This document shows, piece by piece, positions 6,544-64,000 of a stretch of DNA of 64,000 bases (position 1 is the stretch's first letter; each line of letters opens with the position of its first letter). The notes under the pieces were generated by a model. That model worked only from the letters and a program-made list of their open reading frames with translations. It searched no databases and was not told the DNA's origin. Made by a program: the position numbers and the translations under genes. Location: contig SNVD02009547.1 in the NCBI GenBank assembly GCA_013180625.2, forward strand, positions 330,367-394,366, in the 5' to 3' direction. This stretch comes from Boswellia sacra. Its lineage: Eukaryota; Streptophyta; Magnoliopsida; Sapindales; Burseraceae.

Positions 6544-9500
6544 CTACCACCCCAAAATGAAGGCATGTACTTCAGCCCAACTTGAGACTGTGTAAAGAAT
6601 GCCAGATTTCCCCTTCCAATTAGAAGAGCTTCCTTCACCATATTCCTTCTGTTTCTTAACCAAACCAGGGTACAATGGCACAAAGGAGACACCAAATTGA
6701 CTTCCCACTCTCCTTAAGCTGGAACTAGATCCAAATACAATGCCTATATCTGCCTCAAGCAGACAAAGTAAGTCACCCACTGAATCTCCAATATACACAG
6801 TAAAGTTCTTTCTGTCAGTGCCACAGCTATTTAAAATATTTGTGAAAGCTTGAATCTTGTCAATGGGGGACTCCACCTTCTTAACAATTTCACCCGTGGA
6901 AATGGATTCTTCAAAAATGAATTCATTTGCATGCACATTCAGAACATTTAGATCTGCTGCTTGATAATAAATAAATAAATAAAAATAGTTAGGATAATGA
7001 AAAAAGATAAACTACTAAAAAACTTCTAGCAACAAAAGCCAGTGAACATTTTATCAAATTACAGAAGAAACGAAAAGCCTTTACACACACCTAATTTGAA
7101 AATGGAAGATAAAAGAGGAGAAGGCAAAGATTAAGATTAACATAACCCACAAGCCAGAGAACATTTGAGAATTAAACTAAAATATAACTAAATGAGAAAT
7201 TAACTGACAAGCCAAAATAGTATAGCGAACACATTCAGACTGATCATAGTGGTGCCATCGACCCGGATTTATAGAGGAAAGAAAGAATTTTGCTGATCAT
7301 TTGACCCAAAACTAACAAAGTAGAGCATGGACATAGTGGAAAATGCAGTTGAAGCCTTTGAAAGAATTGCAACCAGGAAATTTTACTTTTGGCGATCAAA
7401 ATTTCATAAAGCAGCTTTTGATGATACTGATGGGTAAGTAATTTCTTAACAAAGAAAAGAAAAAAAAAAGAAGAAGCAGTAATTATGTTTTTGTTTGCGT
7501 TTGCAATTTTAGTGTGAATATCTATGTAATGAGCATGAATGCAAGTATAAGTACTAAAATCACCAAAATACTCATTAAATAGACATGTCCATATTATGCC
7601 TCAAAATGTTATGCACGCCAAATATCCAATTGAGACCAGAAGTATCCCTATTCAAATGTCGTTAACTATTTTTACCACAAATATATTAGTTATGCCAAGG
7701 GAGCAAAATTAACAGAGACTATGCATGGAATACTAAAGGAGTAAAATACTGCAATAAAAACAAGAGATCAATTTTTACTGCAATAAAAACAAGAGATCAA
7801 ATTTTTTTTTTTTTTTTTTGGCCAAGTCACTAAAACTGTGTTTAAGTACTAAAGATCAAGTCTTGATTCATTCTCTAAGAAGTATAAAATTGTCATAAAT
7901 CAAAATAACCATGTTAGTTCCGAAAAGAAAAACAAGTTAAAGAATTGTAATCCTCATATGGTAAATTAATATGTTATCGAATATGTCAAACTTCTGCATT
8001 CACGAATTCTTTATGGAGGGACCATACCTGCTGAAAAAGATGCTCTGATGAGATCATCACACCAACAATAAGAAAGTACATGGACATTTGCATTTAAATT
8101 CTCATTCTTCACAATTTTCTGAAAGAAGGTAGTACAACCATCATGAAGAATCAGGCGTTCACCAGCTCGTTTAATGTCTTCAAGATTTATACCCTTCAGT
8201 ACCTCAGACTCAATCACTCTAGAATTTGCTCGCTTCTCAAAATCTGACAGTTTCTCAAGTGCTTTTCGTAAAGCTTCGTAGTTGAATTCCTCCACTGGAA
8301 AATCCCAAAAAAACCAGTAACATCATCCAAATGTTTCCATAAACAGTTTCCAATGTTTAAACACAAGAATTGGATTTTCAAGGACAGGCAAAATACCTTT
8401 ATCAGAGGGCATGATGCTTTCAATGCACTGTTCATACTCTTCAGTGTATTCTCCGGAAAGCCGCCCCCATGTGTTCCTTAGCTCAGCTGATGACATCCGA
8501 CCAAGTTGAGTTTCAGGTTGATTCTGATCAGATTTTGGGGCTGTCACTATTGCAATCTCTGCCAAAATGGCAGATGAATCAACAATAGTGCAGGTCAAAT
8601 CAAAATCAGAAAATATGATAAGTCGATCTCCTGCAGGACTATGCTCTTTAATCAGAGGAACTACAGTGGGTTGAGCAAGTGGCTGAGCACAGAAAAACTC
8701 AATTTCAAGTTTCATGGCTTGGTGATAAAGCTTTTCTATAATGTCTAGTTCTTCGCCTGTCAAAGAGACACTGAGTTTATCCAGCAAGTCTTCTGTTTGC
8801 AGAGCTGCTGCCTAAAATAAAAGAAATATAAGAGTTCAGATGAAGTGAAAAGGCCATTTAGATAATGTAGTTTCCTCCAAGACTATAACCAGAAAAGCAT
8901 GATCAGATTCACAAATAAAGCAAAATGAGATTACTATTCAAATGAAGACATACCTGAAAACTATCAGAGGAATAATTGTCAATCCATTTCCTGTAAGGGT
9001 GGTCACCTTTACCTTGATTTATAAGTGCCTGGAACTCCTTACCAAGGAAAGCATAAAGCCGCATACAAGGTGACATAGCCCCCAATGTGTAAGCTGCAAC
9101 TTTTGTTCTTTCAAATGGCGTTGCAAGTTTTCCAGGACCTTTAACACCGTCAACTTTCCCAGAGGCTGTTGCCAACAAGAACTCCGTATACTTTACCGTT
9201 GCAGAGTTAATTCTAGCCTCTTTAGCAAGGTCCATACACCACTCCTGCATGTCCCAAACATTCAGACCATGGTAATACTCCACGAAATGGCAAGAAAGAA
9301 GTTTATTTACATATCAATCATTACAAACCATAAGTATATGAAGCCACTTTGTGATTTACATAGCATTTGGGGGCAAAAATTACATTTTCAGATAGAAAAT
9401 ATAAAGCAATTCTGTTTAAACAAAACAAAGTAAAATAAAGGGCTCCCATTGGGTCAGGAAAAGTGCCACTTATATCAGAACTATCCACTTCTTTCGAAGC

Positions 9501-12500
9501 AAACTGTCAATGTTAAAAAACATCCGAAAGATTCTATCTTGGCAATATCTGAAAAAGAAAGGGAAAATAAAAGAAAAAAAGATTAGCTCTCCAGTAAATC
9601 CAACATTCTTTTCATGATTTAAGAATTTGCAATCAACATGCAAATGGCATCCCTTTCTATAGAGATAGAGACTTTTTTTTTTTTAATACTTAGGGTCCGT
9701 TTGTTTTGTCCACTTAAATCTGAATCTATTTAGATTTAAGTGGCTAAAATAATTTATGATTGTTTGTTTTGTCAATTTAACACTTATTTTTAGACAATTT
9801 TGTCTGCATAGAAAAAGTAAAAAATTTTTACTTTTTTTCTTTTAGAACATCTGAATTATTGAAATACCTATACTACCCTTTTATGACATATCCCCTCAAC
9901 GCCTTCCTTTCTCTATCTGGCCGCCACCCTCTCAACATCAATTAACCCATCATGTCATCTTCTCAACATCACTTCACCTAGACATCTGACTATAATTTAT
10001 TATAATTATATTTAAAAAATTTCAAATGTTTAAAACAATTATAATACAAATATATTTATATGTTTTATTATAAGGATAATAATAAATATATAAAATATAA
10101 TTTAAATTAAGAACATAATATTATTTATATTTATTTGTATTTGAATTCTAAATTTTAATTATTTTATATTTAATTAAATTTAGTATTTTTTAAATAATGT
10201 TTATTATATATTAAAATAAATTATTGTAAATAAATAAAATAATTAGGATAATATAATTATTTAATAATTAGAATTTTGATTTCATTTTATTAAATATTTA
10301 TTGTTTAAATAATTGTAATAAATATAATATTAATTATTTAAATGACAATATAATTTAGACATTTTATATTTCAACAAGGATAAAAAAGTCACATTAAAAT
10401 TAAAATATTCTCTTACCACTTTTTTTAAGTGATATATAAAAGAGTAAACAAATATCCTATTAAGTGGTATAAATTAAGTCCTAAAAAGTATTTAGATCTA
10501 AAAAGTGTTAAGTGTTTAAAATAAACACTACCTTAGAGACAATAAAGTGAATATTATAACTAGTGAAATACTGCAACTATCAAAGCCAACTGAATCTATA
10601 ATATTATCTTGTCGAAACTGAAACTCTTATATAATAATCATTTAACCGGTTAAACATTCCATTTATTTACAACCCAAATCCATGGAAAAGTTATTCTTCA
10701 CTATTCAATTGAATATGATTAGATCTCCAACATTCAAGCTTAATCTTCAGCTTAAAAAAGAATTATTGAAAATTACTAAAAAGTATTTAGATCTAAAAAG
10801 TGTAAAGTGTTTAAAATAAACACTACCTTAGAGACAATAAAGTGAATATTATAACTAGTGAAATACTGCAACTATCAAAGCCAACTGAATCTATAATATA
10901 ATCTTGTCGAAACTGAAACTCTTATATAATAATCATTTAACCGGTTAAACATTCCATTTATTTACAACCCAAATCCATGGAAAAGTTATTCTTCACTATT
11001 CAATTGAATATGATTAGATCTCCAACATTCAAGCTTAATCTTCAGCTTAAAAAAGAATTATTGAAAATTACCTGTACAAACGAATTATGCATTTTTAACT
11101 CCTCCAGTACAGCCTTCCTCAACTCAGAGATAGATAGCTTCGCATCATCATCATCAGCACACTCTTCTGCCAATTCATACCTAAATATTCAAACAAAAAT
11201 TATGCAAAGTCCAGGATAGGAAGTCTAAGCCCTTAATTCTAGACAAAACTAATTGAGAGAACTTAACATATTTTTATTTTGTAAATTAACATTATCTGTT
11301 GATTCACATTATCAGAAACTCAACAGAAGTAGTGCAAGTATTTATTTATTTATTTATTTTTTGTCAATACCAATCTAAATCTACAATTGGTTCCTGCAAA
11401 AGCTGAGTAGAAGAAGAAAGGGAAAAATAAACAGATTTTTTTTTTTTCCCTCAATCCTGTTATCCTTCAATAAGATAGAAACCCTATTTAAAATCTTGAG
11501 TTCCGATTTTTTTTTTTAACGATTTTTTCCTCCAAAACCAAACAAATAGTAATTCATAGAGTGAACTTGAACGAATTCTGAATAACGGTGGTTTTATTTA
11601 AGTACGGAAATGATTAAATTTTCAAAAGTACATTTACATTAAAACCAGTCTCTATTTCATCTCTTTTTGATAACCTAGAATTTCCTCAAATTTATAAACC
11701 AGTCAATCTTGACACCGTAATTCTATCAGTAAATTCTTTATTAGAATCACACACAGTCATAGATAAGAGTAGAAAACAACATTATTTAGTAAATGATTGT
11801 ATGATATTACAATTTTTTTTCCCAAACTACCTCCAAAACTAAATGATTGTATGATTGTATGATACTCATTAAATATAAAATAAATAAATAGTCATAACAA
11901 AAACAGATCAAAATGGCATGCTAAGCCTCCTTAAACAATCAAAGCCTCATATATGATTAAATGTGATCATTCCCTGATAATAATCACACAAAAATCTTAA
12001 TCTTTCTTTCCTTTTCAGCAATTAAACAGACAGTTTCAAAATTAGATTCTCAAATTTTTCTTATTTTACCACATTTTCCCGGCTATTAAACATCCCAGAT
12101 ACCAGAAACGAATATTTAATATCCACAGTCTCAATCTCAGATTCTCAAATTTTCTCCATTTTCCTGCATTTTCCGAGCAATCAAACAAACCCATACTAAA
12201 ACAAAACCAAAGAATTCCAGAAACCCACTTACGCTTGAGCAAAAGCTTTGAGAAAATGAGCATCTTGGGCAATATAATGCCTGAAAGTGTCAATCTTTAG
12301 ATTCCCAGCAGCCAAACAGAGCGCAAATGGAGTGTACATGGCGAAGACAGATTCTCTCTTGAACTTGATCCAGAACCTTCTCGCGAGTCCCTCCTCATCG
12401 GTGCATGGCGATTTTGGAGGAATCGCCGCCATGGAAAGGGGGGATCTTAGGGAGAGGGACTGGAGTCGGAGGGAAGGGAGTGAGTTTAGAGAAGGGCGGA

Positions 12501-12567
12501 GTCGGAGGAAGGAGGAAAGATTGAAGAGTAAAGGGGTCTTGATTGGTTTTGTGGAGAGCAGACGCAT
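6544..12567 (-). CDS. TH2: Bifunctional TH2 protein: TenA-like domain plus HAD thiamin-monophosphate phosphatase
   Basis: Six exons join in frame with GT-AG borders: 12567-12233, 11180-11072, 9244-8954, 8811-8397, 8294-8028 and 6956-6544, giving 609 residues, close to Arabidopsis TH2. Residues 1 to about 45 are rich in Arg, Ser and Leu and lack acidic residues, as in a mitochondrial transit peptide. Residues about 55-245 are the TenA/THI-4 helical domain (LAAGNLKIDTFRHYIAQDAH, then YTEFLLATASGKV). From about 305 a HAD phosphatase follows, with DFDLT (314-318, nucleophile Asp), SYCWCDDL and GDSVGD (529-534). In plants TH2 removes phosphate from thiamin monophosphate to give thiamin, and the TenA part salvages thiamin breakdown products. 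A second ATG at 12432 (residue 46) could give a form lacking the presequence. The last acceptor reads AAGCAGCAG, so exon 6 may start at 6959, 6956 or 6953. Introns hold a MITE and duplications. Confidence 0.93.
7748..7806. repeat. Short tandem duplication in the last TH2 intron
   Basis: The roughly 30-bp unit containing TGCAATAAAAACAAGAGATC occurs twice in a row, followed by a run of about 19 T. It lies within the intron between exons 5 and 6 and has no visible coding effect. Confidence 0.75.
9693..10532. mobile_element. PIF/Harbinger-like MITE in a TH2 intron
   Basis: An 840-bp AT-rich element begins GGGTCCGTTTGTTTTGTCCA and ends AAATAAACACTACC. The ends are imperfect inverted repeats, including TTAAATCTGAATC on the left against GATCTAAAAAGTG on the right. 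The flanks carry TTA on both sides (9690-9692 and 10533-10535), the usual Harbinger target duplication. A related element sits at 35449-36807. It lies in the intron between exons 2 and 3 of TH2, and its right end is included in the adjacent 295-bp duplication. Confidence 0.7.
10481..11070. repeat. 295-bp tandem duplication next to TH2 exon 2
   Basis: Two head-to-tail copies, 10481-10775 and 10776-11070, differ at about two positions that I can see (for example GTGTTAAGTG against GTGTAAAGTG). Each starts in the MITE right end and ends in TTGAAAATTA. The last base of copy 2 is part of the splice donor of TH2 exon 2 (the GT of the minus strand is 11071-11070). The near-identity indicates a recent event, after MITE insertion. 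Confidence 0.92.
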
Positions 12568-12970
12568 CAAAGAAAAAGAAAGAGAAAGTGAGAGATGGGA
12601 TTGGGATGTGAAGGGAAAGGGGAGTGAAGGGAAGCGTATGTAATTGTAATGTGTACGTTTGAGTTGGAAGTATTTTTCTTTTTGTGTTTTTGCTTTTGTT
12701 TCGTTGTTGTGGTTGGCTGACAAAAGGGAGGGAAGTTTTCATCAACTGGGCTTTTCTTATTGTTCTTGGGTTACCTTTGAGTGATAAATATCAATGCCGT
12801 TGGGCTTTCATGATTTGGGCTAATGACATCTAAGAGTGGGCTCAAACTAGAGCAGTCTATATTCTAATGGGCTGGTAAAAAATATATTGTTGTTATTTGA
12901 GTCCCACAGCATAATATCTTTTCGAGTCTCGCTTTTAATTTTTTATAATTAAATATCCATCAAAATATAT
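12568..12970. promoter_or_regulatory. TH2 upstream region and spacer
   Basis: Upstream of the TH2 ATG on the minus strand there is a strongly pyrimidine-rich leader (CTTTCTCTTTCTTTTTCTTT, near 12570-12590), common in plant 5' untranslated regions. An open frame continues upstream to 12723 without a stop, but family comparison favours the ATG at 12567. No clear TATA box was identified. Confidence 0.4.
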
Positions 12971-43244: not shown

Positions 43245-44400
43245 CTAAAGGATTCTAAAGGATTTTTCTATTCTTGCTCTTTTACTACGTCTAGGCTCAT
43301 CTTCAATAACTTGTTCTTGGTCCTGACTACCCTCAGTGATAGCCTCATAAGTTTGTTCAGATGAACTTGGTTCTTCTTTGGATTTATACGAAAATTCATG
43401 TTCAAAGAATGATGCATTTCTCGATTCCATTGTTGGGTTTTTATGTATATCTTGGATTTGTAACTTATACACAAGAAACCGATAAGCACTACTATTATGA
43501 GCATATCTTATGAAAATGCAATCAATTGTTCTTAGACCTATTTTCATCTTCTTAGTTATAGGTACCACTACTTTAGCAGGACACCCCCACACTTGTAAAT
43601 ATTTGCAGGAAGGCTTTCTTCATTTCCATAATTCATAAGATGTCTTTTTATCTTTCTTGTGGGGTACCTTATCTAAAAGGTAATTAGCTAACAAAATAGT
43701 TTCCCTCCCACATGTTCTAAGGCGACCCGGAACGTAACAATATTGCATTCATCATTTCTTTCAAGTTACAATTTTTAAGCTAAGTAACTCTGTTTGATTG
43801 AGGCAAATAAGGTGGTTTGGCCTCATGTATTATTCCATGTTGTGCATAGAACTCACCAACAGGTGATTCATACTTTTCACCACTGTCAATTTTAATCACC
43901 TTAATATTCTTATTAAGTTAATTTTCAACCTCATTTTATAAAGAATAAGCTTCTCTATTGCTTCATCCTTGCTTTTCAATAAATAAACATAACAATATTT
44001 TATGCTACCATTAAAAAAAGTAATAAAATACTTATTGCCACCTCTTGTTTGAACAAATTTCAAATCAAAATATCACTGTGAACTAAATCAAAAGGTTCAA
44101 TATTTCTTTCTATAGTCTAAAAAGATGACATTGTCAATTTCGCCTCAACACAAGTTTCACACTTATGTTTTAAATTAATTTGACAAGCAAGAATATGATT
44201 TAAGTTAACTAATCTATGGAATGTATTATAATTAACATGTCATAGTCTACCATGCCATAAAAAAGAAGACTCAATCAAATAAATAGAAGAACTAGTTTTA
44301 TTGATTTTGGGCTTTACAGTTATTACATTGAGTTTAAATATACCCTCACTCTCATATCCCTTTCTAACACACATATCACCCTTGGTAAGTACAAATTTAT
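43245..44400 (-). pseudogene. Copia integrase (nested element)
   Basis: The frame 43245-43592 (MWGCPAKVVVPITKKMKIGL, then a tail ending EPRRSKRARIEKSF) is the end of integrase leading into the region before reverse transcriptase. Upstream, about 43600-44400, integrase core sequence is visible only in short broken frames (for example, complement text corresponding to HGIIHEAKPPYLPQS around 43810-43850). Heavy decay. Confidence 0.65.
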
Positions 44401-46686: not shown

Positions 46687-47640
46687 ATAAGTTCACATGG
46701 TTCTAATTCATTCATGCCTTAGTCCTTCAAAAATCCTTAGATTGTTGCACATGGATCTCATGAGTCCAATGCAAGTTCAAAGCATTTTGGGTAAAAGATA
46801 TTTGTTATGTGTGTTGATGACTATTCTAGATATACTTAGATTGATTTTGTTAAAGAGAAATCTAATTCATTTTAAGTATTTAGAAACCGTTGTTTCAGGT
46901 TGGAAACTGAGCAAAATAGAAACATTTGGAAGGATAGTTAGAATTAGAAATAACCATGGTAAGGAATTTAAGAATGAAAGCTCTACAGACTTTTATAAAC
47001 TTCATGGCATTGCTCATGAGTTTTATGCACCAAAGACTCCAGAGCAGAATGGAATGGTTAAGAGAAAGAATAGAACATTGCAGAAGATGGCAAGGGTGAT
47101 GCTGTATAGCAAAAAGCTCACAAAGAGGCTTCAAGCAGAAGCTTTCAATACTGCATGTTATATGATCAACAAGGTGTTCTAAGGCCTGGAACAAGTCAAA
47201 CCCTTATGAGCTACTTTGTGTTTGGTTACAGTTGCTATCTACTCAATAATAAAGGGTAGCTTGGAAAATTTGATGTAAAGAGTGATGATGGGATGTTTTT
47301 AGGCCATTCATTAAATAGAAAAGCTTATAAGGTGTACAATTTGAGAACTGAAACAATTATGGAGTCCCCTAATGTTGTTTTTGATGATCTCAATGATTTT
47401 GTAGAATTTTCATAGGAAGAGATGATAGAAAGTTTCTCAAAGTTAGTTGATGGAACAAATCTAGAAATTGTAGAAATGACAGTTCCAGTCACATTCGGAA
47501 AAACCAGTGAAGTCAGGATAGACAGAACTACCATGTCTGATAGCACATATTTAAGCAGAAAAGAATTGAGGGATGATTCCAACAACGAAGACCACCGTTC
47601 CACTACCCCCTACACATAAACACACACATACACACAAATT
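46687..47640 (+). pseudogene. pol: Sirevirus-like integrase, continued after the nested insertion
   Basis: ILRLLHMDLMSPMQVQSILG opens the core domain. The 46697-47182 frame continues with RIRNNHGKEFKNESSTDFYK (second catalytic Asp position reads N in NNHG) and TPEQNGMVKRKNRTLQKMAR, which carries the catalytic Glu region (normally NGVVERKNRT, here MVKRKN, so Glu is replaced by Lys). 47270-47400 holds the C-terminal part. Shifts and stops throughout. Confidence 0.8.
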
Positions 47641-48418: not shown

Positions 48419-50520
48419 TGTAAAGCCCATAAGTTTCATCAACAAAAGGCTAGCCCAAACTAATGGGATAATTACCCCATCTCCTAACCCAGCCCATCAT
48501 TTCTTTCTTGATTTAATTGCGATTGACTCGAATTAGAAACAAATTAGAAGAGGTAGGCAGAGAGGGGGAGACGTGAGAAGGGGGAAGAAAGCAAGAGAAG
48601 TTTTTGATTTTCTAAGGATTTTGACATCCTATTGAGGTAATTCTTTCATCTCCTAGCTTATTTAGATTTTATATCTTAAATTCTACCATTAGATTAGTAT
48701 TAGAAATTTATTATTTGACATTTGGAGAATTTTTAGGGTGATAATCTAGAGAGAGAAACAGAATTCCATGAAATTTTTAGGCTTGACTTTCTTTTATTTT
48801 GATGCGAATTTGATATTTCCTTATTCAATTAGATGAATTAGTGAGTATTTGGTATTATACCCATTTAATCCATTTTACCCAATTTTCACCTAATTTCGAA
48901 TTTTTAAATTTTCTTTTTAGATATATATTTTTATGAAAATTAGTAATATTACTAGCCATTTTTAATTCTAGGAAGCAGCAATTGATAGATTTATAATAGT
49001 TTATTTCATTAAGATTCCCATAAGTAGAAATTTTAGAAATTTGGCTTAGCTATATATTTTGGTGCTATTTGAGAATTTTCATTCAATTTTCCATTAGTTG
49101 GTACTGTATTTCCAATTCCGGATCCAAATTTGTTAGAAGAAGTGGGAGCCACACGAATAACTTAACAAGCTAATGAGTGTAAAAAATATGATTTTACAAA
49201 GATTTTAAATATGATTCAAATTTCTCTTTTTATACACGTTAGAAGAGATTTATTATGTTTAGTAAATTTACTTTTAATTGTTTTACCAAGTATATTTGAT
49301 GAATTATCAAATGTTGTTATTAGATTTCTAGAAAGAATTGTTTAATAGTATGGAAATTTTAAAGTACAGTTAGTTTCCAAAATATCTTAAATAAAGATAT
49401 AATTCAAAAGAAAGAAGAAGATTTTATGTTTTACTAAGCTAGTATCCCATACAAATAGTTAATAGATTACTCAGACAGTGATACAAATAGATATCTTTGG
49501 GACTCATTCAGACACACATAAAGGCTTTGCTTAGTGTGATATGGACATTTTAGCCCTTTGGGGGCAGCTCTTCGCATGTGTATGACTAGTATAGAGAGTT
49601 GTTCTAGCTATGCGATCCTAGCCCCGCCAGGTTAGATCAACTAGATTAGATGGGTACTTGATTAGTTAAAATTATTATGTAAAAAAATTATATTATGAAT
49701 GGATTTCATGAGATTGAGAAACTTATTTTATTTATTGAAATTATGAATGTCAAATATAATTAGAAATGTTTTAGAACATTTTTATATTAACAGTTAGCTT
49801 ATGTAAAATGTATTATGAAAGAGTTAAAGATTTATTCTTCATTATGTATCAATTTTACTGGTTCTTTAAAGAGTTTTAGTAGAGATTACATTTTAAATGT
49901 TAAATGCTATTATGCAGTATCTTTATGAAATTCTAAAATTTATTTTAGAATGTCTCTATCCCCACCCACTAAGATTTTTACTCACCCTCCTTTTTCTTGT
50001 AAAATCCCTTTCTCCCAAGAGATTGCAATGTTCAGTCAATACACAGCTAGTGGCTTGAGGTTGGCAACTTGATGATGTTTAGATAGATTTTGTTGTATAT
50101 ATATTTAGATACTACATGTATATAATGTATATTATGTACTTTTTGTTTAGAACCTTTTACTTATAAGTCATGCATAAGTTTTAAGAAAACGTTGCTTTTA
50201 ACTCCTTTTTTTGTAAATTTTGAAACGTAAAGTAATTATGTTTGAGGCCAGAGACCATGATTTTGTTATGATGGTTGTTTGTAAAATAAATGTTTTATTA
50301 GAAAATTTTGGGTTATAAAAGAGAAATTGGTGGCATTTATAAATAATATTTTGAAGTGTTTTATTTTGTGTATTTGGTAAAGGGTTTAGTCTAAAAATAT
50401 AGGGGATATTTTGCCAAATTTTTTTTAAAATTTTCCTTTAGAAAGAATTAATGTATTCAAAGTTAGAAGTGTACAATTTTAGGCACAATTCGCATATGTA
50501 GCAAGGGGCGGGTCGTGTTG
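48419..50520. repeat. Solo LTR, family A copy 2
   Basis: A 2102-bp block from TGTAAAGCCCATAAG to GGGGCGGGTCGTGTTG is inserted into reverse transcriptase. The flanks AGTAT (48414-48418) and CGTAT (50521-50525) form a 5-bp duplication with one mismatch, and coding sequence resumes exactly in frame across it (FEMS then MVGELTFFLGLQV). It matches 25250-27393 over its length. No internal region is present. Confidence 0.85.
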
Positions 50521-51340
50521 CGTATGGTAGGTGAGCTTACTTTCTTTCTAGGTCTCCAAGTTAAGCAACTTGATGATGGAATCTTTATTTCACAAATTAA
50601 GTATGCTAAAAAATTGGTAAAGAAGTTTGAGTTGGACAAAGCTAAACTAATGAGAACACCTATTACTACTAATCTCAAATTGTCAAGAGATAATGTAGCT
50701 AATGTTGTGGATCGGAGTCTATACAAAAGCATAATTGGAAGTCTCTTGTACCTCATAGCCAATAGACCTAATATCAGCTTCAATATTGGTCCGTGTGCTC
50801 GGTCATGTTTGAAAGGACAACACCTTGCTGCAGTCAAAAGAATTATCAAGTACGTTCATGGGATAGCAGATTTTGGAATTTTGTTTTCAAAAGACACATA
50901 TTCATGTCCTGTAGGTTATAATGATGCTAATGGGATTGGGAATGTAGATGACTGAAAAAGCACTACAAGAGTTTGTTTTTACCTTGGGAATAATCTAGTT
51001 GCTTGGCATAGCAAGAAACAAAATTCAATTTCTTTGTCAATTGTAAAGGCTGAGTATACTGCAACTAATAAGTTGTTGCACACAATTTTTATGGATGAAA
51101 TAGATGTTAAATGACTTGCTATTAATCAAGAATTCATGACAATATTTTGTGATAACACTAGTGCAATCAACATCTCTAAAAATCTAGTGTAACACTTAAG
51201 AACTAAACATATAGACATAAGATATCATTTCATTAAAGCTGGTTGAATCTAAAATAATCCACATTGAGCATATTTCAATTGAGAATTAATTAGCTGACTT
51301 GTTTACCAAAGCAGAGACTCAACAAGGTTTGAAAAGCTGA
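50521..51340 (+). pseudogene. pol: Sirevirus-like reverse transcriptase end and RNase H
   Basis: The frame 50515-50955 contains GELTFFLGLQVKQLDDGIFI, YKSIIGSLLYLIANRPNISF and KRIIKYVHGIADFGILFS, the end of reverse transcriptase and the connection. After a TGA, RNase H pieces follow (RVCFYLGNNLVAWHSKKQNS near 50970, then NTSAINISKN near 51163). It ends near 51340 with the usual ADLFTKAET-like tail. Several stops are present. Confidence 0.85.
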
Positions 51341-55238: not shown

Positions 55239-57146
55239 TTTGACATATTTTAGAAAATTATATACCTTTAGATTATATATCTCTTTCAATTCTATCAATA
55301 GCAGTGATCTCTTTATAGTTTTTTCATTAGTAATTATGTATTTTCGTTTTAATATTTGTGGAAATTTTTTTTGAGAAATTAGTTAAAAATTATAAAATAT
55401 ATATTCTCAATATTTAAACTATTAAATATTTATCATACATTAACTAAAAATGAGCAGCAAATAATCTATAAATTTTACCAATGTTGTCCATTCTTAAAAA
55501 TTGAATGGGACAATAATATTTTAAAATATTTCACTATAAGACACCGTCATTGCCGCGGGGCGTCCAGGCACAAAAAATGTAGGCATGGACACAATCCTAA
55601 ATTTTGCAATCATTGCTGCGAGGTCTCCAGTCGCTAGGCATGCAGGCACGGACACAACCCTAACTATCGCAGTCATTGACTCTACTGTGATTGCCACTAC
55701 TCCATAGAAGTTTCAGGCACAAGTAATAGAGATATGGTGGGCAACATTTGTCAGATACGAGGTCATTGGAGGAGTGAATTGTAATCGTTAACATCAAGAT
55801 CAAAGATTCGACGGCTACCATGGACGGCTAAGTCAAGAAACTTACCCTTGTGACTCAAGAACAGTTCAAAACACTCCTGGAGAATCAACAAGCCGTAATG
55901 CAATATCTCAACAAAGCATGAGAGCTTTAATTATCTATCCACAACTATTTGAACAACTCTTTAATGATGAGAAATGTTTATATTGGGCAACAACGCATGA
56001 AAGCTTTAATTATCTGTCCATAACTATTTGAACTGCTCATTAACATATGAGCGCAGGGTCTGACCTTGAAGGATAAAAAATAATAATAATAACAAGTAGC
56101 TTTTTTTAAAAAAAGGGAATCCTCTCAAATTTTATTGATGAAAAAGATTTAATCACAGGTATAAGGTTTAACTCTCTTACATAGGATAAAATAAAAAGTC
56201 CTAAATACTATAAAAAGTTAAAATATAAATTCCTAACACCTAATAATATAATAATACTAAAATAACCCAAAATAAAGTAGTCCAAATATAATATAAATGA
56301 AGCATGAAAATTACACAAAAATAAACAATCTAAAAAATTTAATGGCCATTATGCACTCCCAAGTCAAGAAACTTATGCATGTTATTCAAGAACATTTCAG
56401 GACTCTGTTGGAAAGTCAAAAAGGCATGAACTATCTTAACAACGTGGAGAAACCTTCAATTATCTGTCTACAACTGTTGAACAGCTCTTTAATGATGAGA
56501 GAGATTTATATTCGACATATTAATCTGGGATCTGGGTGTTGTCTGGTACAAAGTCCTGACAAGTGTTGCCCAATAGAAACCATGCAGACAATTTTTAGAT
56601 AATGTAGCATATAGCAGTTATATTTGTGAATAAGGTTCTATTCACTTTTACTTTGATTGCAACCATAGCGATCCAGCCTTGTGCGCTCTCTTTTATGGAA
56701 AGATATGTTTCCTAAGTATTATGCAACTTGTGTGAATACTTATGTAAAATTTGTTGATACTTTCTTTTATTATGTAAAATAGTTTGTGAAAATTAAAAAA
56801 TGTCCTAATTCAAAAAAAAAAAGCATTCCTGTTGGTTCTAGATGTGACATGTGCATTGCACATGAATAATTTGTCATCATGTGATAAAAACATTAAATAT
56901 AGATATTTTTCTAATCTCATTTATTTTATATAGATGTTTTGTATTAGGAGAATTTTAATTAAAATAGAATAAGTTTTGGTATGGTATCCTAGTTAAATAG
57001 GAATAAGTTTGGATTTTGTGTCCTAGTTGAAATAGGAAGTTTATATTTGTATTAATTATCTCTTATTAGATTAGGATATTATTTACGTATTCTAGTTTAC
57101 TTAGGAGAAGTATATTATTACTTCCTATAATGTTTGATTGTTATCC
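55239..57146. other. Spacer with two diverged copies of an unknown module
   Basis: 55855-56000 and 56385-56525 share an ordered sequence (for example CTCTTTAATGATGAGA and TTAATTATCT or TCAATTATCT), and a third partial copy lies at about 55995-56045. The plus strand can be read as SQVKKL followed by EQFKTLLENQQ or EHFRTLLESQK, like the coiled-coil leader of a gag-related frame. No family is recognised, and stops are frequent. The rest is AT-rich. Confidence 0.4.
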
Positions 57147-58570
57147 TGATGCGTTCGAAACTAGCAAGTATACTAGTCGCACAAGTAATAAAGTGATAAG
57201 TAAGATATCGTTCCCACGAGGATTGATTCTAATTGAATTTGTTATTTCCAGCAACAATAAACTAAACAGGGGGGATTTTTGTTGAATGCTTTACTAAATG
57301 AAATAAGAATGCAAGTAAAGAATAACAAAACAGAAAGTAAATTTGAATGAAAAATCAATGGGAGACACTTGGTTAAGGGTTCTTCTCTGCCACAAGATAT
57401 GAATTTGTGAATTAACATAGAATTGTAATCCAATTACAGCATTGAAGTTATCAACCGTAGATAACAACAAGCTCTGTTATCCCAATCTTTCCTTACTTTG
57501 TTGTTAAATAAAACAAGCTCTTTATTTAATCTCTATCCATTAAACAACCTAGAACAAGCTCTCTAAGTTTAATTCAATAGAAGCATTACGATGAGAAAGA
57601 TAGGTTGATCTAAGCAATAATCACACAAGTTCGGATTATTTAACCTAGGTTGTATTTTCCAATTGCAATCTCTGATCACAATTTTGCTACTAATGATTGG
57701 AAATTCATGACAATTACGGATCAAGATTTCTAATCTAGCAATAGACAACAACAGATTATATTCAGTTGGCCATTCCAAATACAATCAGTAAACAATCATA
57801 AGCATTAGATATGGGAAAATACAAGCAACTTCAATTAGAGAATTGGATAACAATTTCTTACACAATCAACTCACAAAATCCATATCAAGGGCTTTGAAAT
57901 CACCCTCAACCAATTCAGATTTAGTTACACATATTCAATCAGAATAACAAATACAATACAGAGAAATTCCAGAATTGAAAAGGAAAGAAAGAACTTAGCA
58001 AATTCTTTGAAAATCTTCTTTGTAGATGAATCTTCTTGGAATTGTAGTTCCTCCTCTTTCAAAATCTTCTTTCTCCTTCAAGAACTCCAAGGGATGAGAG
58101 AAATCCAGAAATGCAGCCTCCTCCCACGTTTTCCCCTCTTCAAGTTATGAAAATAAAACCCTAAAATGTGTTTAAATACTCTGCTACAGTGACTTGCTAC
58201 AGTGCCCCGTATTATACATGCTACAGTGACTTGTGGAATTATATTTCTATACATCTCACACTGTTTTGATTACAACTTTTGGTACACTGAATGGATTTAT
58301 AAACCGTAAATTTCTCCAGAAAATAGACTTCGAGAGCTTTCCAACGGTATATAACATGTCATCGGGTTCATTGTATATCAATACAATTAAATCCGAGAAG
58401 ATCACTGACTAGCAGAGGTGAAAATGAAGGGTTTTACTCCATTTTTGTGCAAGTTGCTCCAAAACTCCTACAAACATCAAAACCACACAAAAACATAAAA
58501 ATACCAAGGAATATAGCAAAGAAACATGGACGAATTGATATAAAAGTAATACATAAATAGACACCTATCA
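57147..58570 (-). repeat. 3' LTR of the gypsy element
   Basis: 1424 bp, TGATGCGTTCG to ACACCTATCA. It contains Tat-type LTR words such as GTTCCCACGAGGATTG near 57210. The purine tract abuts its right end. TATCC at 57142-57146 is the expected outer flank, but its partner is outside the window. Confidence 0.75.
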
Positions 58571-58585
58571 AATTCCCCCACACTT
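58571..58585 (-). other. Polypurine tract of the gypsy element
   Basis: On the minus strand AAGTGTGGGGGAATT directly precedes the LTR start TGATAGG. Similar AGTGTGGGGG words occur near 59181, 59305, 61500 and 61567. Confidence 0.8.
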
Positions 58586-60554
58586 AGACTTTGCTAGTCC
58601 TCGAGCAACTAAAATGATACGAAACAAAACTAAACCGAAACAGAATCAAAGAAAAATTAAAACACACAAATGCTTCAACTTGCAAATAGGCCTCAAAGAT
58701 TGTACTTAATTATAACCCAAGGAATACTTCAAAATAATGCACTTGATCAAGAATTTTATCTCAAAAATTAGTTTCGCTTCACTTCAATTCCTCAAGTGTG
58801 TGTGTGTGTAGAGCCATTCTCACCTAATCACTTGTAACCCGGATGAGTTTATGCATAAAAATGAATCATATTTAATATTGAAGATGTGTGTATAAATGAA
58901 CTCCATAGGCCTGCTTTTCAAGTCACTCTCCACTAATGTAGACATGCACAACACCAAGGATCAAGTAGGACTTTATTAAGCTTGTAACGTTTGGCTTGGG
59001 TGAAGGTATGATAAAGGATAATAATTTGGCTCAAATCACCCACAAACACATAAATCATTCAAGACTATGTAGAGCTCAACCCTATAACACAACTTCATTT
59101 CAATTCACCAGGTTACTCTCCCAAACTTATTTAGAACACTCAATCTTTTTTTTTTTTTGGCACAAAAGAAAAGAAAACTACACCCCCACACTTTGTTGTT
59201 TCATTCTTTTTAAGAACACTTAAGGGTATAGATCTCTTATTATTCTTCTTTTTTTTCTTTTTTTCTTTCTTTTTCTTTCTTTTTTTTATTTTATTACACT
59301 TCCCCTCCCCCACACTTAAACAACACATTGTCCTCAATGTGTAAGTACGTGGACGATAAGTACAGATTGGCTTTTTTTTTCTTTTTTTCTTTTTTTTTAC
59401 AAACATAATAGAACTCACTTGCATTGCTCATGACACATCCCAACCTCCTCTAACTTCCCAAAACCAGAACATAGCTCAAAATTTAATTGTGAATGATCTA
59501 CATGCTCATAGGTAAGGGATAAACTGTTTGGAACAAATTCATTTGAGGTTAGGAAATCTTTTAGTGAGTTAACAAAGAAAAAGGCTTACAGAGGCTCAAA
59601 GGGGTAACTAGGGATCAATTTCAGTCAAGGTTGGCTATTAAGGCTCAAACGGTCCAAAGATGGCCTAAATCATTTCCCCAATGTTGCACAGTCTAGGATT
59701 TCGCCTCGAGTGACCATCAAACAAGTTCTAGAATTCATTGAAATCTGAAGAAACATTTAAATTACATAAACTTTCTCTAAGTGAACAAATAACTCAGTGA
59801 TAATAGCTCAGTGCTCAATGTTGCGCAAGGAATCAAAAGCAAAGCGAAAACCAATAAACATTTCAAGCACACAGATCCATGCATCATTTATCATTTTCCA
59901 AGAGTTATTCTTAATTCAATCATTATCTTATCATCGACCCACAAAATGCAAGAAAAGAGGTACGTGGCGTTGTTACACCTGAGTCAAGATTGTATATTTC
60001 AACAATCCTTAGGACCAGTAGCCCGCAGACTTAAGGTTTCCAGCCTATATACCTTTATTATGAAAGAACAAAACAAGAAACAAGACACTTCAAACAACAT
60101 GAAATAAACAAACTACAGATTTATTGAGAGAGAATGCGTTTCAAGAGTTAAGAAAACCCCATATTCTGCCATTCTCAGGTTTTTCCACAATGTTTTTTTT
60201 TTGAATCGAAACTGATAAAGACAAAAACACACAACTCGAAATTACATAAAACTAAACTTACTCAGAAAATAATAAAGTCCAACAAATCAGCAAACACAAA
60301 CAAGTCAGTTAGAATGGGTCTAAAAAGTTTAGAAGTTAGCCTCCTTATTCAGCCATTATGGATTAAAGAAATCCAGAATGCGTTTCAAGAGAACTTGAAC
60401 TTTTTAAGCCACCACTCTAAAAACCGAGATTAGAAAATATTACCTGGGACGAAAGAAATAACCTGAAAAAGCTTAAAAGAAACGACATGAAAAATCTCAA
60501 ATAAACACACTAAAAAGAAAGCAAACAAAAACGAAGCAAACCAGCAAATAGAGA
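58586..60554 (-). other. Non-coding 3' internal region of the gypsy element
   Basis: No gene recognised. It has long pyrimidine-rich tracts on the plus strand (59246-59290 and 59371-59398), a second purine-tract-like word near 59305 (complement of CCTCCCCCACACTT), and a run of 10 T at about 60196-60206 that could be the poly(A) of an inserted cDNA read on the minus strand. Confidence 0.5.
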
Positions 60555-61204
60555 TTACAGATGGAGGGTTAAATCCAGTTGACGCCTTTTGTTGCCTTCT
60601 CCAAACCAATTTATCCGAGCCATTGTTGGATCAGGTGAATAGACGAATTCTTGTAGTTTGTCAATTAACTCTCCTGCATTTGAAGCTGTAACCAACATTT
60701 GCCTTGCTGACGGTGAGATGAAATTTTTTTCTACAGCTTGATCAAGAAAGGACAACAAACCATCAAAAAAATTATTACATTTAACAAACCAATGGGTTTC
60801 CGATGGATGTTTAGCTGTGCCCAAGAGGTGATTTGAAATATCTCCTCTAATGTACCATAACCACCCGGCAAAGCTATAAATGCATCGGACTTAACAACCA
60901 TATGTGCAATACGCTCATGCATACTAGAGACCTGTAACTCTTCCCCGATTGTGTTGCCTACGATATCTCGTACAGCTAATGGTTTAGGGATAATGCCGAG
61001 AACTTTGCTCCCTCCTAGGGATGCAGCTGTTGACACACACCCCATTAACCCAAGACTACCCCCTCCATAAATCAAATTAATATCCCTCGCAGCTAGTGTC
61101 CTACCAAGATCAAGAGCTGCTGTGGTAAACTCTCCATCTTTACCAAATTGCGATCCGCAAAATACGCATATATTGCGGAATCGCCGAATTGGTGTTTTCT
61201 CCAT
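60555..61204 (-). pseudogene. LOG: Intronless LONELY GUY copy inside the gypsy element, one frameshift
   Basis: From the ATG at 61204 the frame encodes RRFRNICVFCGSQFGKDGEF, YGGGSLGLMG (46-55), SSMHERIAHM (94-103) and the signature PGGYGTLEE (113-121), followed by SWAQLNIHRKPIGLLNV. LOG enzymes release ribose 5-phosphate from cytokinin nucleotides to give free active cytokinin. After residue 143 the frame shifts: GTAATAATT appears where one more A would continue into NNFFDGLLSFLDQAVEKNF, which is open to the stop at 60555. So one apparent base deletion truncates it to 157 residues. Plant LOG genes normally have several introns and this copy has none, so it derives from cDNA. The long C-terminal tail (KRRQLDLTLHL) suggests the LOG10-like branch. 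It may still make a truncated protein. Confidence 0.88.
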
Positions 61205-61401
61205 TTCTACAAGTGCTCTAATCTTGTGTAAGACACGTTAGATATTATGCTTTTCAATTGCAAGACAGGTTATGGAATGACATATGAAAATATGCAGAAT
61301 GTATATATACACCCATAAAACTCTCAAATTTTGACACATGGGGACATACTTTCGGTGGGGGTTGCTCGATGCAGATTTATCGCCCCAAGATTTGAAAAAA
61401 T
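61205..61401 (-). other. Spacer between LOG copy and tandem array
   Basis: No gene. The part from about 61345 (CTTTCGGTGGGGGTTG) is a degenerate start of the 67-bp array. Confidence 0.5.
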
Positions 61402-61589
61402 GAGATATGCTTTCGGCGAGGTTTGACAAAACCTACACACTTGTCTCCCACGTGAAGCATGGAAAATGGAGATACACTTTCGGCGGGGGTTGACAAAACC
61501 CCCACACTTGTCTCCCACGTGAAGCATAAAAAATAGAGATACACTTTCGGTGGAGGTTGACAAAACCTCCACACTTGTCTCCCACGTGT
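61402..61589. repeat. 67-bp tandem array with hairpins and G-boxes
   Basis: Units start at 61402, 61469 and 61536 (period 67; the third is partial). Each contains a short inverted repeat: AGGTTT-GACA-AAACCT, GGGGGTT-GACAA-AACCCCC and GGAGGTT-GACAA-AACCTCC. A stem pair is G-C in unit 2 and A-T in unit 3, a compensatory change. Each unit also has CCCACGTG, the plant G-box core, and CCCACACTT or a close variant, the complement of the element purine tract word. Confidence 0.9.
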
Positions 61590-61814
61590 ACTTATGCCAT
61601 AGGGTAGTCATATGGTTTGTCAAAAAGAAAACTTGAAATTAAAACAAACAAAATCAACAAACAACAACAACACAAAAACAACATTGATAATCAGATCAAA
61701 CGAAACAAGAAAAAAAAATTCGACAACAACAACACACATTCAAATATACAAGTAGTTGTGATTGTGGCTCACATCTTCCTCTGGTTTTACGTCCAGTAAC
61801 GGCTGAAACGCCTT

Positions 61815-62498
61815 CTATGAGTCGGGGATTTGCTTCCCATCCAGTTTTCTTATAAACTGGCAAACAGGGTCGTTTTTAGTCAGATTCCCTAGACTATAAC
61901 ACTGCAATTCATCACGAAATTGTGTCCATAGATTAAGCAATTCACGCTGAACAAGTCCACAAGAATGTGACTCGAGAGTTAACAAAACATTATCCAGCGA
62001 CTCATTACTCAAACCATTCTTAATAAATGAAAGTTTATCTTCTCTATTCCTGGACGCAAAACCTAATGAACGACAAGTCTGGTTACAATTCCATCTAGCA
62101 CATTTATAACATACTTGTAACCTTTTCGCTCTTCGCCTCTTGGCGTAGTAGCTCTTTCCTAGACCAGGCATGTATTTTGCGAGATTAATGTCCGGCTCAC
62201 CGGACAATCTCACCTTGGCTTCGATAAGCCATCGGATATCAGCAGGCACATTTAGGAGCATCAATGCCCAAAGTCTAGTCATCCGTACTTTATAAATTTT
62301 AAACACAGCATTTTGAGGAAGTGAAGGGAAATATTTACGAAGGTTCGATAGAAAGATATCAGCATCCATTGAAGAGAAGAAAAGAAGAGATATTACCGAT
62401 AATGCGATTGAGTTTTTTTCTTCTCCCAGATATGCACGTTTCAAACCTTCGAACAATGGCTTCAACTCCCGTTTGAATGTTTCCTCAAGCTGTTGCAC
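61815..62498 (-). CDS. Gypsy-borne protein with basic stretch and C-x2-C-x4-C-x3-C motif
   Basis: An uninterrupted 227-codon frame ends with TAG at 61815. It has no ATG at its start: the first codons are GTG CAA CAG, and upstream the frame is open only to 62522. A pyrimidine-rich tract ending TTCGAGTTCAG lies just before it, so it is probably a downstream exon reached by splicing. Otherwise translation begins at the Met at residue 44. Residues 1-110 are mostly helical in composition. KSYYAKRRRAKRL (115-127) is followed by Cys130, 133, 138 and 142. This arrangement, a basic stretch directly before a small Cys cluster, resembles the cysteine-rich nucleic-acid-binding proteins of carlaviruses, a likeness judged by eye. 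A role in RNA binding is inferred. It lies 0.3 kb downstream of pol in the same element. Confidence 0.7.
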   Translation of the reverse strand: MQQLEETFKRELKPLFEGLKRAYLGEEKNSIALSVISLLFFSSMDADIFLSNLRKYFPSLPQNAVFKIYKVRMTRLWALMLLNVPADIRWLIEAKVRLSGEPDINLAKYMPGLGKSYYAKRRRAKRLQVCYKCARWNCNQTCRSLGFASRNREDKLSFIKNGLSNESLDNVLLTLESHSCGLVQRELLNLWTQFRDELQCYSLGNLTKNDPVCQFIRKLDGKQIPDS

Positions 62499-62525
62499 AA
62501 CTGAACTCGAAGCACGGAATAATCA

Positions 62526-62552
62526 AATTAAACACAAGAAAAGAAAAGAAAA
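62526..62552. repeat. (AAAAG)n short repeat
   Basis: About five AAAAG units (minus strand CTTTT), forming the pyrimidine tract upstream of the putative splice acceptor before the Cys-motif frame. Confidence 0.85.
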
Positions 62553-62814
62553 GAAAAGAAAATAGAGACACATAAAAGAAATAAAAACACAAGAGCAAAT
62601 GAAAGTCAAAAACAAACAACAAAGCAAATAAGACAAATGGCAAAGAGAGATAAAACCTGATCAATTATAATAGCCCATGAGAGGAATCTCCTCGAAACAC
62701 AAAAATTGATCAATACTACCTTCTTTTCTTTGTCTCTTTTTATTTATATTTCAAAAACATTGGGTTGCCTCCCAATAAGCGCTTGGTTTAACGTCCTCAG
62801 CCTGACGTTATCTA
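62553..62814 (-). other. Linker between pol and the Cys-motif frame
   Basis: No coding frame. The minus strand has TTGATCAATTTTT and AATTGATCA as an inverted pair around GAGGAGATTCCTCTC (62655-62712), which can fold, and GGGAGGCAACCCAA near 62763, a word seen at the end of pol in Athila/Tat-type elements. Confidence 0.5.
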
Positions 62815-64000
62815 TCCTCACCCATCAAGATAAGTTGGCTCGTAGAGAGGTACCTCATCGATGTCCTGCATCACTGAATTCTCATAGTAAGGCTTCAACC
62901 TGTGCCCATTCACCTTGAATACTTTATCCGTTTTTAAGCTCTTGATTTCCACTGCACCATGGGGAAAAACATTAGTATAACAAAAGGTCCAACCCATCGA
63001 GATCGTAATTTACCTGGAAATAACTTGAGGCGAGAATGAAATAAAAGAACTTTCTGTCCCACTTCAAAATTCTTCCTGGAGATCAGTTTATCATGAAATG
63101 CCTTAGTTCTCTCCTTGTAAATTCTGGAATTCTCATAGGCATCATTTCTAAGTTCTTCCAATTCTTGCAGTTGAAGCTTCCTTTGTTCTCCAGCAGCATC
63201 CATCTCCATGTTACAAAGCTTTACTGCCCACCATGCTTTGTGTTCGAGCTCTACTGGAAGGTGACATGGCTTACCATAGACTAACCTATACGGAGACATA
63301 CCAATAGGTGTCTTGTAAGCAGTTCGATATGCCCAAAGTGCATCATTAAGTCGTAGGCTCCAATCTTTTCTGTTCGGATTCACTGTCTTCTCGAGAATGG
63401 ACTTGACTTCTCGATTTAAAACTTCAACTTGACCACTTGTTTGTGGATGATAGGCAGTAGACACCTTGTGAGTGATGTTGTATTTTTTGAGCAAGGCTTC
63501 AAATGATCTGTTGCAGAAGTGTGTCCCTCTATCGCTTATTATGGCTCTTGGTGTTCCAAATCTCGCAAAAATGTTAGATTTCACAAAATCTACAACAACT
63601 TTAGAATCATTAGTTCTCGTAGCTTTTGCTTCCACCCATTTAGAAACATAATCCACAGCAAGTATAATGTAAACATTACCAAAAGATGAAGGAAAAGGAC
63701 CCATGAAATCAATACCCCACACATCAAAAATCTCGACAATAAGTATAGGGGTTTGTGGCATTTGATTTTTGGCACTTAAATTACCTGTCCTTTGACAACG
63801 GTCACAAGCTTTGCAGAACAGATATGCATCTTTGAACAATGATGGCCAATAGAATCCACAATCAAGAACTTTAAGGGCGGTTCTTTTTGGTCCGAAGTGA
63901 CCTCCACATGCATAAGAATGACAGAAGGTTAAAATTGAATTAAATTCAGATTCAGAAATGCACCTTCTTATCACTTGGTCAGAATAATGCTTCCATAAGT
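62815..64000 (-). CDS. pol: Gypsy integrase (3' end of pol), partial, one frameshift near the end
   Basis: The frame is open from beyond the window edge ([13 protein letters not shown]...) to about 62934. Numbering from the codon at 63974, the zinc-binding part has H19, H26, C57 and C60. The catalytic core has D89 (DFMGPF), D148 (DRGTHF) and E184 ([10 protein letters not shown]), with exactly 35 residues between D148 and E184. [14 protein letters not shown] and the C-terminal [16 protein letters not shown] follow. Integrase joins element DNA to the host chromosome. Near residue 333 a shift moves the reading to a second frame ([12 protein letters not shown], then [11 protein letters not shown]) that ends at TGA near 62815. 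The core is intact, so this copy is comparatively young. Confidence 0.9.

What the first reader, a model, noticed from the sequence alone, without database searches (positions are those of the whole stretch)
60555..61204. A cytokinin-activating LOG gene appears captured as cDNA inside a gypsy retrotransposon
An intronless LONELY GUY copy lies on the same strand as pol, between the end of pol and the element's own polypurine tract and 3' LTR. Host LOG genes have several introns. All signature motifs (PGGYGTLEE, YGGGSLGLMG, SSMHERIAHM) remain, and only one base appears missing. If other genomic copies of this element carry the same insert, this is a transposon that multiplies a hormone-biosynthesis gene.
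Basis: partly seen in the sequence, partly recalled or inferred. Interest (0 to 1): 0.88.

Follow-up and report, generated by a model that had tools for sequence, protein, structure and literature searches.

The report
Retrotransposon carrying cytokinin and virus-type genes
A plant jumping gene, present in well over a hundred copies in this genome, carries two extra genes, one related to a plant hormone enzyme and one related to proteins of plant RNA viruses, and both show signs of being kept by natural selection as the element multiplies.

Summary
An intronless LONELY GUY (LOG) frame with one frameshift lies on the pol strand between integrase and the 3' LTR of a Ty3/gypsy element. It is not a chance passenger: the assembly holds at least 150 copies (90-100% identical); in 34 of 35 other copies read, a second gene stands upstream of LOG as here, and 2 of 3 elements tested have matching 5-bp target duplications. 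LOG domains in plant gypsy elements are already in print. Not found in print: (1) the partner gene, related to the zinc-finger nucleic-acid-binding protein (NABP/CRP) of plant flexiviruses; (2) element-type LOGs form a clade and end in a basic patch plus EAR-like LxLxL (72 of 120 hits; 0 of 120 host LOGs); (3) the lysine beside the catalytic arginine, invariant in 120 host LOGs, is aliphatic in 119 of 120; (4) changes shared between copies show omega 0.21 for NABP and the end of LOG, single-copy changes 0.78-0.87, so both genes were selected through transposition. Best reading: a two-gene accessory cassette acting on the host for the element's benefit, LOG having become a nuclear, pocket-altered protein. 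Function is untested.

The parts
62934..63998 (-). pol: integrase region (H2C2 zinc finger and rve core), open at the window edge; the frame changes near its end and continues in 62818-63009
   Evidence: Pfam PF00665 2.9e-18 and PF17921 1.4e-10; 70% identical over 108 aa to P0094 of Rhamnella, where an integrase end is fused to NABP
61815..62369 (-). NABP-like gene (184 codons, open in this copy): basic patch KRRRAKR followed by a Cys-rich zinc-finger-like motif
   Evidence: Pfam Viral_NABP 2.7e-10 and Carla_C4 5.3e-05; 249 relatives; dN/dS 0.18 against L002
61740..61889 (-). block conserved at nucleotide level across the NABP end, its stop and 75 nt beyond; purpose unknown
   Evidence: 134 of 150 columns equal to L002; no folding signal, z about -0.7
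61395..61588 (-). 67-bp tandem repeat, 2.9 units, each with CACGTG; two units carry the PPT-like AAGTGTGGRGG exactly, one with a mismatch; about 190 bp upstream of the LOG start
   Evidence: 1-4 CACGTG in 31 of 31 copies measured, of 36
60555..61204 (-). LOG-like gene, one frameshift near codon 145 in this copy
   Evidence: open copies of 216 codons exist elsewhere in the genome
60558..60593 (-). C-terminal tail of the LOG-like protein, NKRRQLDLTLHL: basic patch plus EAR-like LxLxL
   Evidence: 72 of 120 element-type hits, 0 of 120 host LOGs; 33 of 36 genomic copies
58571..58585 (-). polypurine tract (AAGTGTGGGGGAATT on the minus strand)
57147..58570 (-). 3' LTR, 1424 bp, TGAT...ATCA
   Evidence: 89-98% identical LTRs with sharp ends in six other copies

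Best explanation
The LOG copy is one half of a two-gene accessory cassette (NABP-like gene, then LOG-like gene, both in sense) between pol and the 3' LTR of an old, widespread, probably Athila-type gypsy family. Shown: position, multiplication by retrotransposition, an element-type clade of LOG distinct from the sampled host LOGs, signs of purifying selection on both genes. Inferred: the NABP-like zinc-finger protein does in the nucleus what its flexivirus relatives do (nucleic-acid binding, weakening of RNA silencing or transcriptional reprogramming); the LOG-like protein keeps the LOG fold and catalytic Arg/Glu but has a remodelled adenine/prenyl pocket and is sent to chromatin by its basic patch, where the EAR-like tail recruits TOPLESS-type co-repressors. 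Together they would change the state of the host cell (less silencing, altered cytokinin or proliferation status) in favour of transposition and entry into cells that give rise to the germ line.
For: Copies: 150 scored matches at 90-100%. NABP upstream of LOG in 29 of 30 loci, one of them (L003) the window's own copy, and in 6 of 6 further copies, 5 of 6 with LOG open to the tail; 3' flanks differ; duplications GTGAC and TAAAG. Selection: LOG codons 151-216, outside the query frame, shared 19 syn/13 nonsyn (omega 0.21) against single 9/26 (0.87), Fisher p 0.007; NABP 21/16 (0.21) against 50/139 (0.78), p 8e-4. NABP dN/dS 0.18 and integrase 0.11 against a distant element, dS near saturation. 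Tail 72 of 120 against 0 of 120, and 72 of the 80 rows whose model reaches the tail. Lys103 aliphatic in 119 of 120, Arg102 kept in 109, Glu125 in 115. Clade support 98/98, rough. Linkage elsewhere: Rhamnella P0094/P0095, Orobanche P0108, three shared contig lengths. Viral relatives of NABP are described as silencing suppressors and, one, as a transcription factor (PMC12172455, passages).
Against: No expression, protein or interaction data. LxLxL is short and may act otherwise; the tail is disordered in the model. The NABP model is poor (pLDDT 59) and its structure search finds nothing significant (best E 0.73), so the viral link rests on profile matches. 31 of 36 LOG copies and 26 of 35 NABP copies examined carry a stop or an alignment gap, although the LOG sample is biased by a frameshifted query. 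Over all pairs of copies NABP has pooled omega 0.58 (LOG 0.21) and differs more (7.0%) than the intergenic stretch (5.5%; LOG 3.8%), so constraint on NABP shows only in shared changes and in the distant comparison. A related element (L002) has NABP but no clear LOG in about 1 kb after it, so LOG may not be essential to every relative. Host sampling in the tree leaves out the LOG5/7/10-type groups, and the element-type hits of other species are protein models without read context.
Confidence: 0.5

Rival explanations
1. The LOG-like protein is still an ordinary cytokinin-activating enzyme. The element raises free cytokinin in the cell where it is expressed, drives division and so spreads the cell lineages that carry new insertions. 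The tail is incidental or only a localisation signal.
For: Catalytic Arg (109 of 120) and Glu (115 of 120) and the PGGxGTLEE motif are mostly kept; the model of P0122 superposes on Arabidopsis LOG3 with TM 0.94 by target length, rmsd 1.5; purifying selection.
Against: Lys103, invariant in 120 of 120 host LOGs, is I/M/L in 119 of 120 element-type LOGs; host E128 is Q in 96 of 120. The equivalents in CgLOG (Lys100, Glu125) are placed in the adenine and prenyl pocket; alanine substitution of AMP-site residues, which are not listed one by one in the text, nearly abolished activity, S19A excepted (PMC4979012, section 6). The Orobanche member P0108 also lacks the Arg but keeps the tail.
Confidence: 0.25
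2. The LOG-like protein no longer works as an enzyme: the fold is a dimeric scaffold that presents a nuclear localisation and EAR-like repression tail.
For: Tail kept where the active site has drifted (P0108: tail LDLSL, Arg and one Glu replaced); pocket lysine lost.
Against: Arg, Glu and glycine-loop residues are kept in about 91% or more of the 120 hits, more than a pure scaffold needs.
Confidence: 0.2
3. Neutral passenger: cDNA capture by template switching, amplified only by hitch-hiking.
For: Many copies are broken; L002 has no clear LOG; the frameshift near codon 145 occurs in 27 of 36 copies, in a sample drawn with a frameshifted query.
Against: Shared changes have low omega while single-copy changes are near neutral; 216-217 aa relatives in other plants (Reevesia, Diplodiscus, Populus).
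Confidence: 0.04
4. LINE-type processed pseudogene that landed in the element by chance.
For: Intronless frame.
Against: Same place in 34 of 35 other copies read (28 of 29 loci other than the window's own, 6 of 6); by eye no poly(A) after the stop on the minus strand; the only direct repeat pair that brackets LOG is a 13-mer at 92% (60490 and 61317), not at its ends.
Confidence: 0.01

Closest known systems
Plant Ty3/gypsy elements with a LOG (YgdH, LOGL4-like) extra ORF: Steinbauerova et al. 2011 (not held) and Citrus and Populus consensuses in PMC9289625 (section 12 read)
   Same: LOG-domain extra ORF inside plant Ty3/gypsy elements
   Different: The section I read does not mention an NABP partner, the C-terminal tail, the pocket change or selection across copies. 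Steinbauerova 2011 I know only by recall of its abstract (two Athila-like elements similar to LOGL4) and by citation.
Orchid Ty3/Gypsy elements with an AlkB RNA demethylase (PMC9289625)
   Same: Gypsy element with an accessory gene of a kind that flexiviruses also carry, kept over rounds of replication
   Different: Other gene, other plant group; there biochemical activity was shown (abstract)
Cysteine-rich NABP/CRP proteins of Betaflexiviridae and Alphaflexiviridae (Pfam PF05515, PF01623; PMC12172455, passages read)
   Same: Basic NLS-like patch followed by a zinc-finger-like motif; profile match over roughly 80-110 residues
   Different: Here in a retrotransposon, mostly 182 aa with conserved ends (C-terminal GNLTLKDPVCQFIRKLDGK) outside the profile match; homology beyond the finger region not shown
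Host plant LOG enzymes (LOG1/3/8-type rows)
   Same: Fold, catalytic Arg/Glu, PGGxGTLEE
   Different: Separate clade, Lys103 replaced, host C-terminus replaced by a basic patch plus LxLxL

Membership tests
LTR retrotransposon, Ty3/gypsy | Paired LTRs, TG..CA ends, target duplication, PBS and PPT | tested here: met
   5-bp duplications GTGAC and TAAAG in 2 of 3 copies tested; the third shows a PPT before the upstream LTR, a tandem arrangement; PPT; PBS read in one copy
LTR retrotransposon, Ty3/gypsy | RT-RH-INT order and RT phylogeny of gypsy | not tested
   Only integrase lies in the window; RT was not read
Athila clade | No second (archaeal-type) RNase H (Tat is set apart by it; PMC6317226, passages) | tested here: inconclusive
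   In L002 Pfam finds only H2C2 and rve in the frame that holds integrase; the genomic copies were not read in that part
Athila clade | PBS for tRNA-Asp | tested here: inconclusive
   PBS TGGCGCCGTTGCCGGGGA in one copy; that it fits tRNA-Asp and Athila is recalled
LOG phosphoribohydrolase | LOG fold and PGGxGTxxE | tested here: met
LOG phosphoribohydrolase | Catalytic Arg and Glu | tested here: met
   109 and 115 of 120; both present in the window copy
LOG phosphoribohydrolase | Adenine/prenyl pocket Met, His, Lys, Glu, Trp | tested here: not met
   Lys kept in 1 of 120, Glu128 mostly Gln (96 of 120); Met kept in 88, His in 87 of 120; Trp not counted apart (residues after PMC4979012)
LOG phosphoribohydrolase | Hydrolysis of cytokinin riboside monophosphate | not testable with these tools
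   -
Flexivirus NABP/CRP | Profile match to Viral_NABP/Carla_C4 | tested here: met
   Window E 2.7e-10 and 5.3e-05; each of the two families matched in 16 of 20 members of A4
Flexivirus NABP/CRP | Structural similarity to viral CRPs | tested here: inconclusive
   Model pLDDT 59; two viral silencing suppressors at ranks 1 and 3 of 18 but E 0.73 and 4.8
EAR repressor | LxLxL or DLNxxP motif (recalled definition) | tested here: met
EAR repressor | Binding of TOPLESS and repression | not testable with these tools

The most novel reading that the evidence does not exclude
A plant retrotransposon family carries a two-part host-manipulation kit: a zinc-finger protein of the RNA-virus silencing-suppressor family and a former cytokinin-activating enzyme rebuilt into a nuclear co-repressor recruiter, both maintained by selection on the element in rosids and asterids, so that a genomic parasite steers host silencing and hormone or meristem state as a virus would.
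Probability: 0.35. Interest if true: 0.92.

Novelty: new variant of a known kind. Interest (0 to 1): 0.74.

Why it matters
Extra ORFs of plant retrotransposons have long been known, mostly without functions. Here two of them have recognisable biochemical ancestry, signs of selection acting through transposition, open copies in one genome and point features (pocket lysine, basic plus LxLxL tail) that can be tested singly. If the tail works, a transposon protein would repress host genes by TOPLESS recruitment; if the enzyme works, transposons would be a source of cytokinin; if the NABP suppresses silencing, it would help to explain how such elements escape RNA-directed control. It also bears on whether flexiviruses and retrotransposons exchanged this gene and in which direction.

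Tried and rejected
LINE pseudogene and neutral passenger: rejected, see rivals. Single ancestral frameshift: the shift near codon 145 is in 27 of 36 copies but scattered on a poorly resolved tree (7 changes, shuffled mean 8.2; supported branches force at least 2), so recurrent change, recombination or assembly error stay open. RNA structure for the conserved block: no signal in two sequences; Rfam: no match in 57000-64000. NABP in IMG/VR: none; LOG in IMG/VR: one distant match, 26%, L001, not followed; an exact block pattern in IMG/VR: none. Viral-structure search: not significant. LOG remnant in L002: one 13-residue match, E 0.032, reached by 6 of 200 shuffles, so chance or a remnant. Literature on NABP or an EAR tail in LTR elements: the listings showed no such report in the held library; Steinbauerova 2011 and Lukhovitskaya 2013 are not held. 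Failed: host LOG exons and copy counts by pattern (machine unanswering). One search was a script whose motif pattern missed most rows; one search replaced it. One search counted no intact NABP because its reference ran past the stop; one search replaced that count.

Full report
What is there. Minus-strand ORFs at 61237-60731 and 60890-60555 are one LOG-like gene with a single frame break near codon 145. Upstream on the same strand lie integrase and an open 184-codon frame, 62369-61815, whose ORF matches Pfam Viral_NABP (2.7e-10) and Carla_C4 (5.3e-05). Downstream lie about 2 kb without a recognised gene, a polypurine tract and a 1424-bp LTR. The element runs off the right edge of the window. 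Between NABP and LOG stands a 67-bp tandem repeat whose units carry CACGTG and a PPT-like string; the 31 copies that could be measured, of 36, have one to four CACGTG there.

Copies in the same genome. The assembly has 638.6 Mb in 7431 contigs; 150 matches were scored (a cap; 12957 loose candidates), 90-100% identical to the first LOG frame. Of the 30 loci fetched with that search (one, L003, is the window's own copy), 29 have NABP-like sequence upstream of LOG; L007 has none. Six more copies, chosen among those listed with longer open frames, all show NABP, LOG and the 3' LTR in this order; in five LOG is open for 216 codons and ends NKRR(Q/K)LDLTLHL, in one it is broken; NABP is open over the part read in three of the six. 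Their LTRs are 89-98% identical to the window's and the seven 3' flanks differ, although the window and L035 share the first five bases. For three copies I also read the far side: two have matching 5-bp duplications, GTGAC and TAAAG, with LTR identities of 98.2% over 1414 columns and 93.6% over 1110 (the stretch ended there); the third has a PPT in front of its upstream LTR, a tandem arrangement. One element spans 9854 bp by these coordinates. With a recalled rate of 1.3e-8 per site and year the two insertions would be roughly 0.7 and 2.6 million years old.

Selection. Copies were sorted by whether a change from the majority codon is private or shared by two or more copies. LOG codons 151-216 were not part of the query's frame and so are least affected by the way copies were picked (six of the 36 were picked for long frames): single 9 synonymous, 26 nonsynonymous, 1 stop (omega 0.87); shared 19, 13, 0 (0.21); Fisher p 0.007. 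LOG codons 1-145, biased by the protein query: single 35/45/4 (0.40), shared 28/7/0 (0.08). NABP, not in the query: single 50/139/10 (0.78), shared 21/16/2 (0.21), p 8e-4 (36 and 35 copies). An independent element, L002, a 3.3-kb plant-type contig in a bacterial MAG, gives NABP dN/dS 0.18 (dS 1.45) and integrase 0.11 (dS 2.28), dS being near saturation; shifted frames of NABP give 0.71 and 1.27. Counter-evidence: 31 of 36 LOG copies and 26 of 35 NABP copies have an in-frame stop or a gap; over all pairs the pooled omega is 0.21 for LOG but 0.58 for NABP; mean pairwise difference is 3.8% for LOG, 5.5% for the stretch between the genes and 7.0% for NABP. Selection on LOG is thus the firmer of the two within this genome.

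Relatives elsewhere. The NABP search found 249 proteins, best 120 listed; the named rows come from Populus, Rhamnella, Xanthoceras and Orobanche. The LOG search found 2933, best 120 listed, of which 60 rows are named Reevesia pubescens on many chromosomes, others Populus, Diplodiscus and Parasponia. I call these 120 element-type because they share the tail and pocket features; their element context was not read, and some Populus rows are named as LOGL10 genes by their source. Linkage outside this genome: Rhamnella P0094 (integrase end fused to NABP) and P0095 (NABP fused to LOG), Orobanche P0108 (NABP fused to LOG), and three contig lengths shared by NABP and LOG rows (8723, 4511, 2128, a hand-picked set of 17 NABP and 12 LOG rows that included the pairs already noticed; equal length is only a hint). 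Rosids and asterids are both covered.

A relative without clear LOG. L002 has integrase and NABP, then about 1 kb in which the only LOG match is a 13-residue piece (E 0.032; 6 of 200 shuffles do as well); an 86-column match to window 59675-59593, downstream of LOG, follows it (73%, E 3.7e-5). So LOG is lost, moved or not yet gained there.

The element LOG as a protein. In a tree of 45 element-type LOGs, the window and 64 host LOGs, tail left out, the element-type rows with the window form one side of a branch at 98/98, the hosts at 99/88; the bootstrap had not settled and LOG5/7/10-type hosts were not sampled. The C-terminus carries a basic patch plus LxLxL: 72 of 120 element-type hits within the last 15 residues against 0 of 120 host LOGs, a few of the latter being odd gene models. 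Of the 48 without it, 40 are models that end early and 8 reach the tail region with changes, one of them only by a loose pattern. In this genome 33 of 36 copies keep it. The lysine of host MHxRK is I, M or L in 119 of 120; Arg102 is kept in 109, Glu124 in 117, Glu125 in 115; host Glu128 is Gln in 96. In CgLOG the equivalents are Lys100 and Glu125 of the proposed adenine and prenyl pocket and catalytic Arg99 and Glu122 (PMC4979012, section 6 read). The model of P0122 (pLDDT 86; tail under 50 in part) matches Arabidopsis LOG3. EAR as the name for LxLxL, and KKRK-type patches as nuclear signals, are recalled, not tested.

How it may work. NABP relatives in flexiviruses are reported as silencing suppressors and, for one, as a transcription factor that induces hyperplasia (PMC12172455, passages read). 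I infer that the element NABP acts in the nucleus in a similar manner and that the LOG-like protein acts there too through its tail. Whether it still makes cytokinin is open.

What is known. A survey of 121 angiosperm genomes lists the YgdH (LOG) domain in Citrus and Populus LTR elements, in line with Steinbauerova et al. 2011 (PMC9289625, section 12 read); the abstract of the latter, recalled, names two Athila-like elements with similarity to LOGL4. That section does not name NABP or Carla_C4; its supplements were not read. My searches for NABP or an EAR motif in LTR elements showed no report, in a library that lacks most subscription papers. The finding is therefore a known kind (LOG-carrying gypsy element) in a new and richer form.

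Noticed in passing
61740-61889 and L002:2271-2415: Nucleotide conservation (134 of 150) continues 75 nt past the NABP TAG stop in an open frame (KAFQPLLDVKPEEDVSHNHNY); P0058 and P0076 have Q or W instead of the stop and read on, P0076 ending NLSLSL. Stop readthrough, splice signal or another nucleic-acid element.
   Followed up: partly
L002:1-3330: Plant-type contig in a Nomurabacteria MAG: related element with integrase and NABP but no clear LOG; one 13-residue LOG match is at chance level or a remnant; its 3' part aligns with window 59675-59593.
   Followed up: partly
61395-61588: 67-bp repeats with CACGTG and PPT-like strings upstream of LOG, number of CACGTG varying between copies; possible internal promoter or extra priming sites.
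   Followed up: partly
58575, 59183, 59307, 61432, 61499, 61566, also 43584: AAGTGTGGRGG (PPT-like) recurs in the element, 7 matches in the window with one mismatch allowed against 0.98 expected; the one at 43584 lies outside this element and may mark another LTR.
   Followed up: no
L040 with L033: One copy has a PPT directly before its upstream LTR, i.e. a tandem or recombined arrangement instead of a simple 5' end.
   Followed up: no
46691-47182 and 50467-50955, + strand: Frames that look like Copia-type integrase and reverse transcriptase fragments, by eye only.
   Followed up: no
6544-12738, - strand: Frames that look like exons of a bifunctional thiamine phosphatase/TENA-type (TH2-like) gene, by eye and recall only.
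   Followed up: no
LOG near codon 145: The same frame break is found in 27 of 36 copies scattered over the copy tree; recurrent change, recombination or assembly error.
   Followed up: partly
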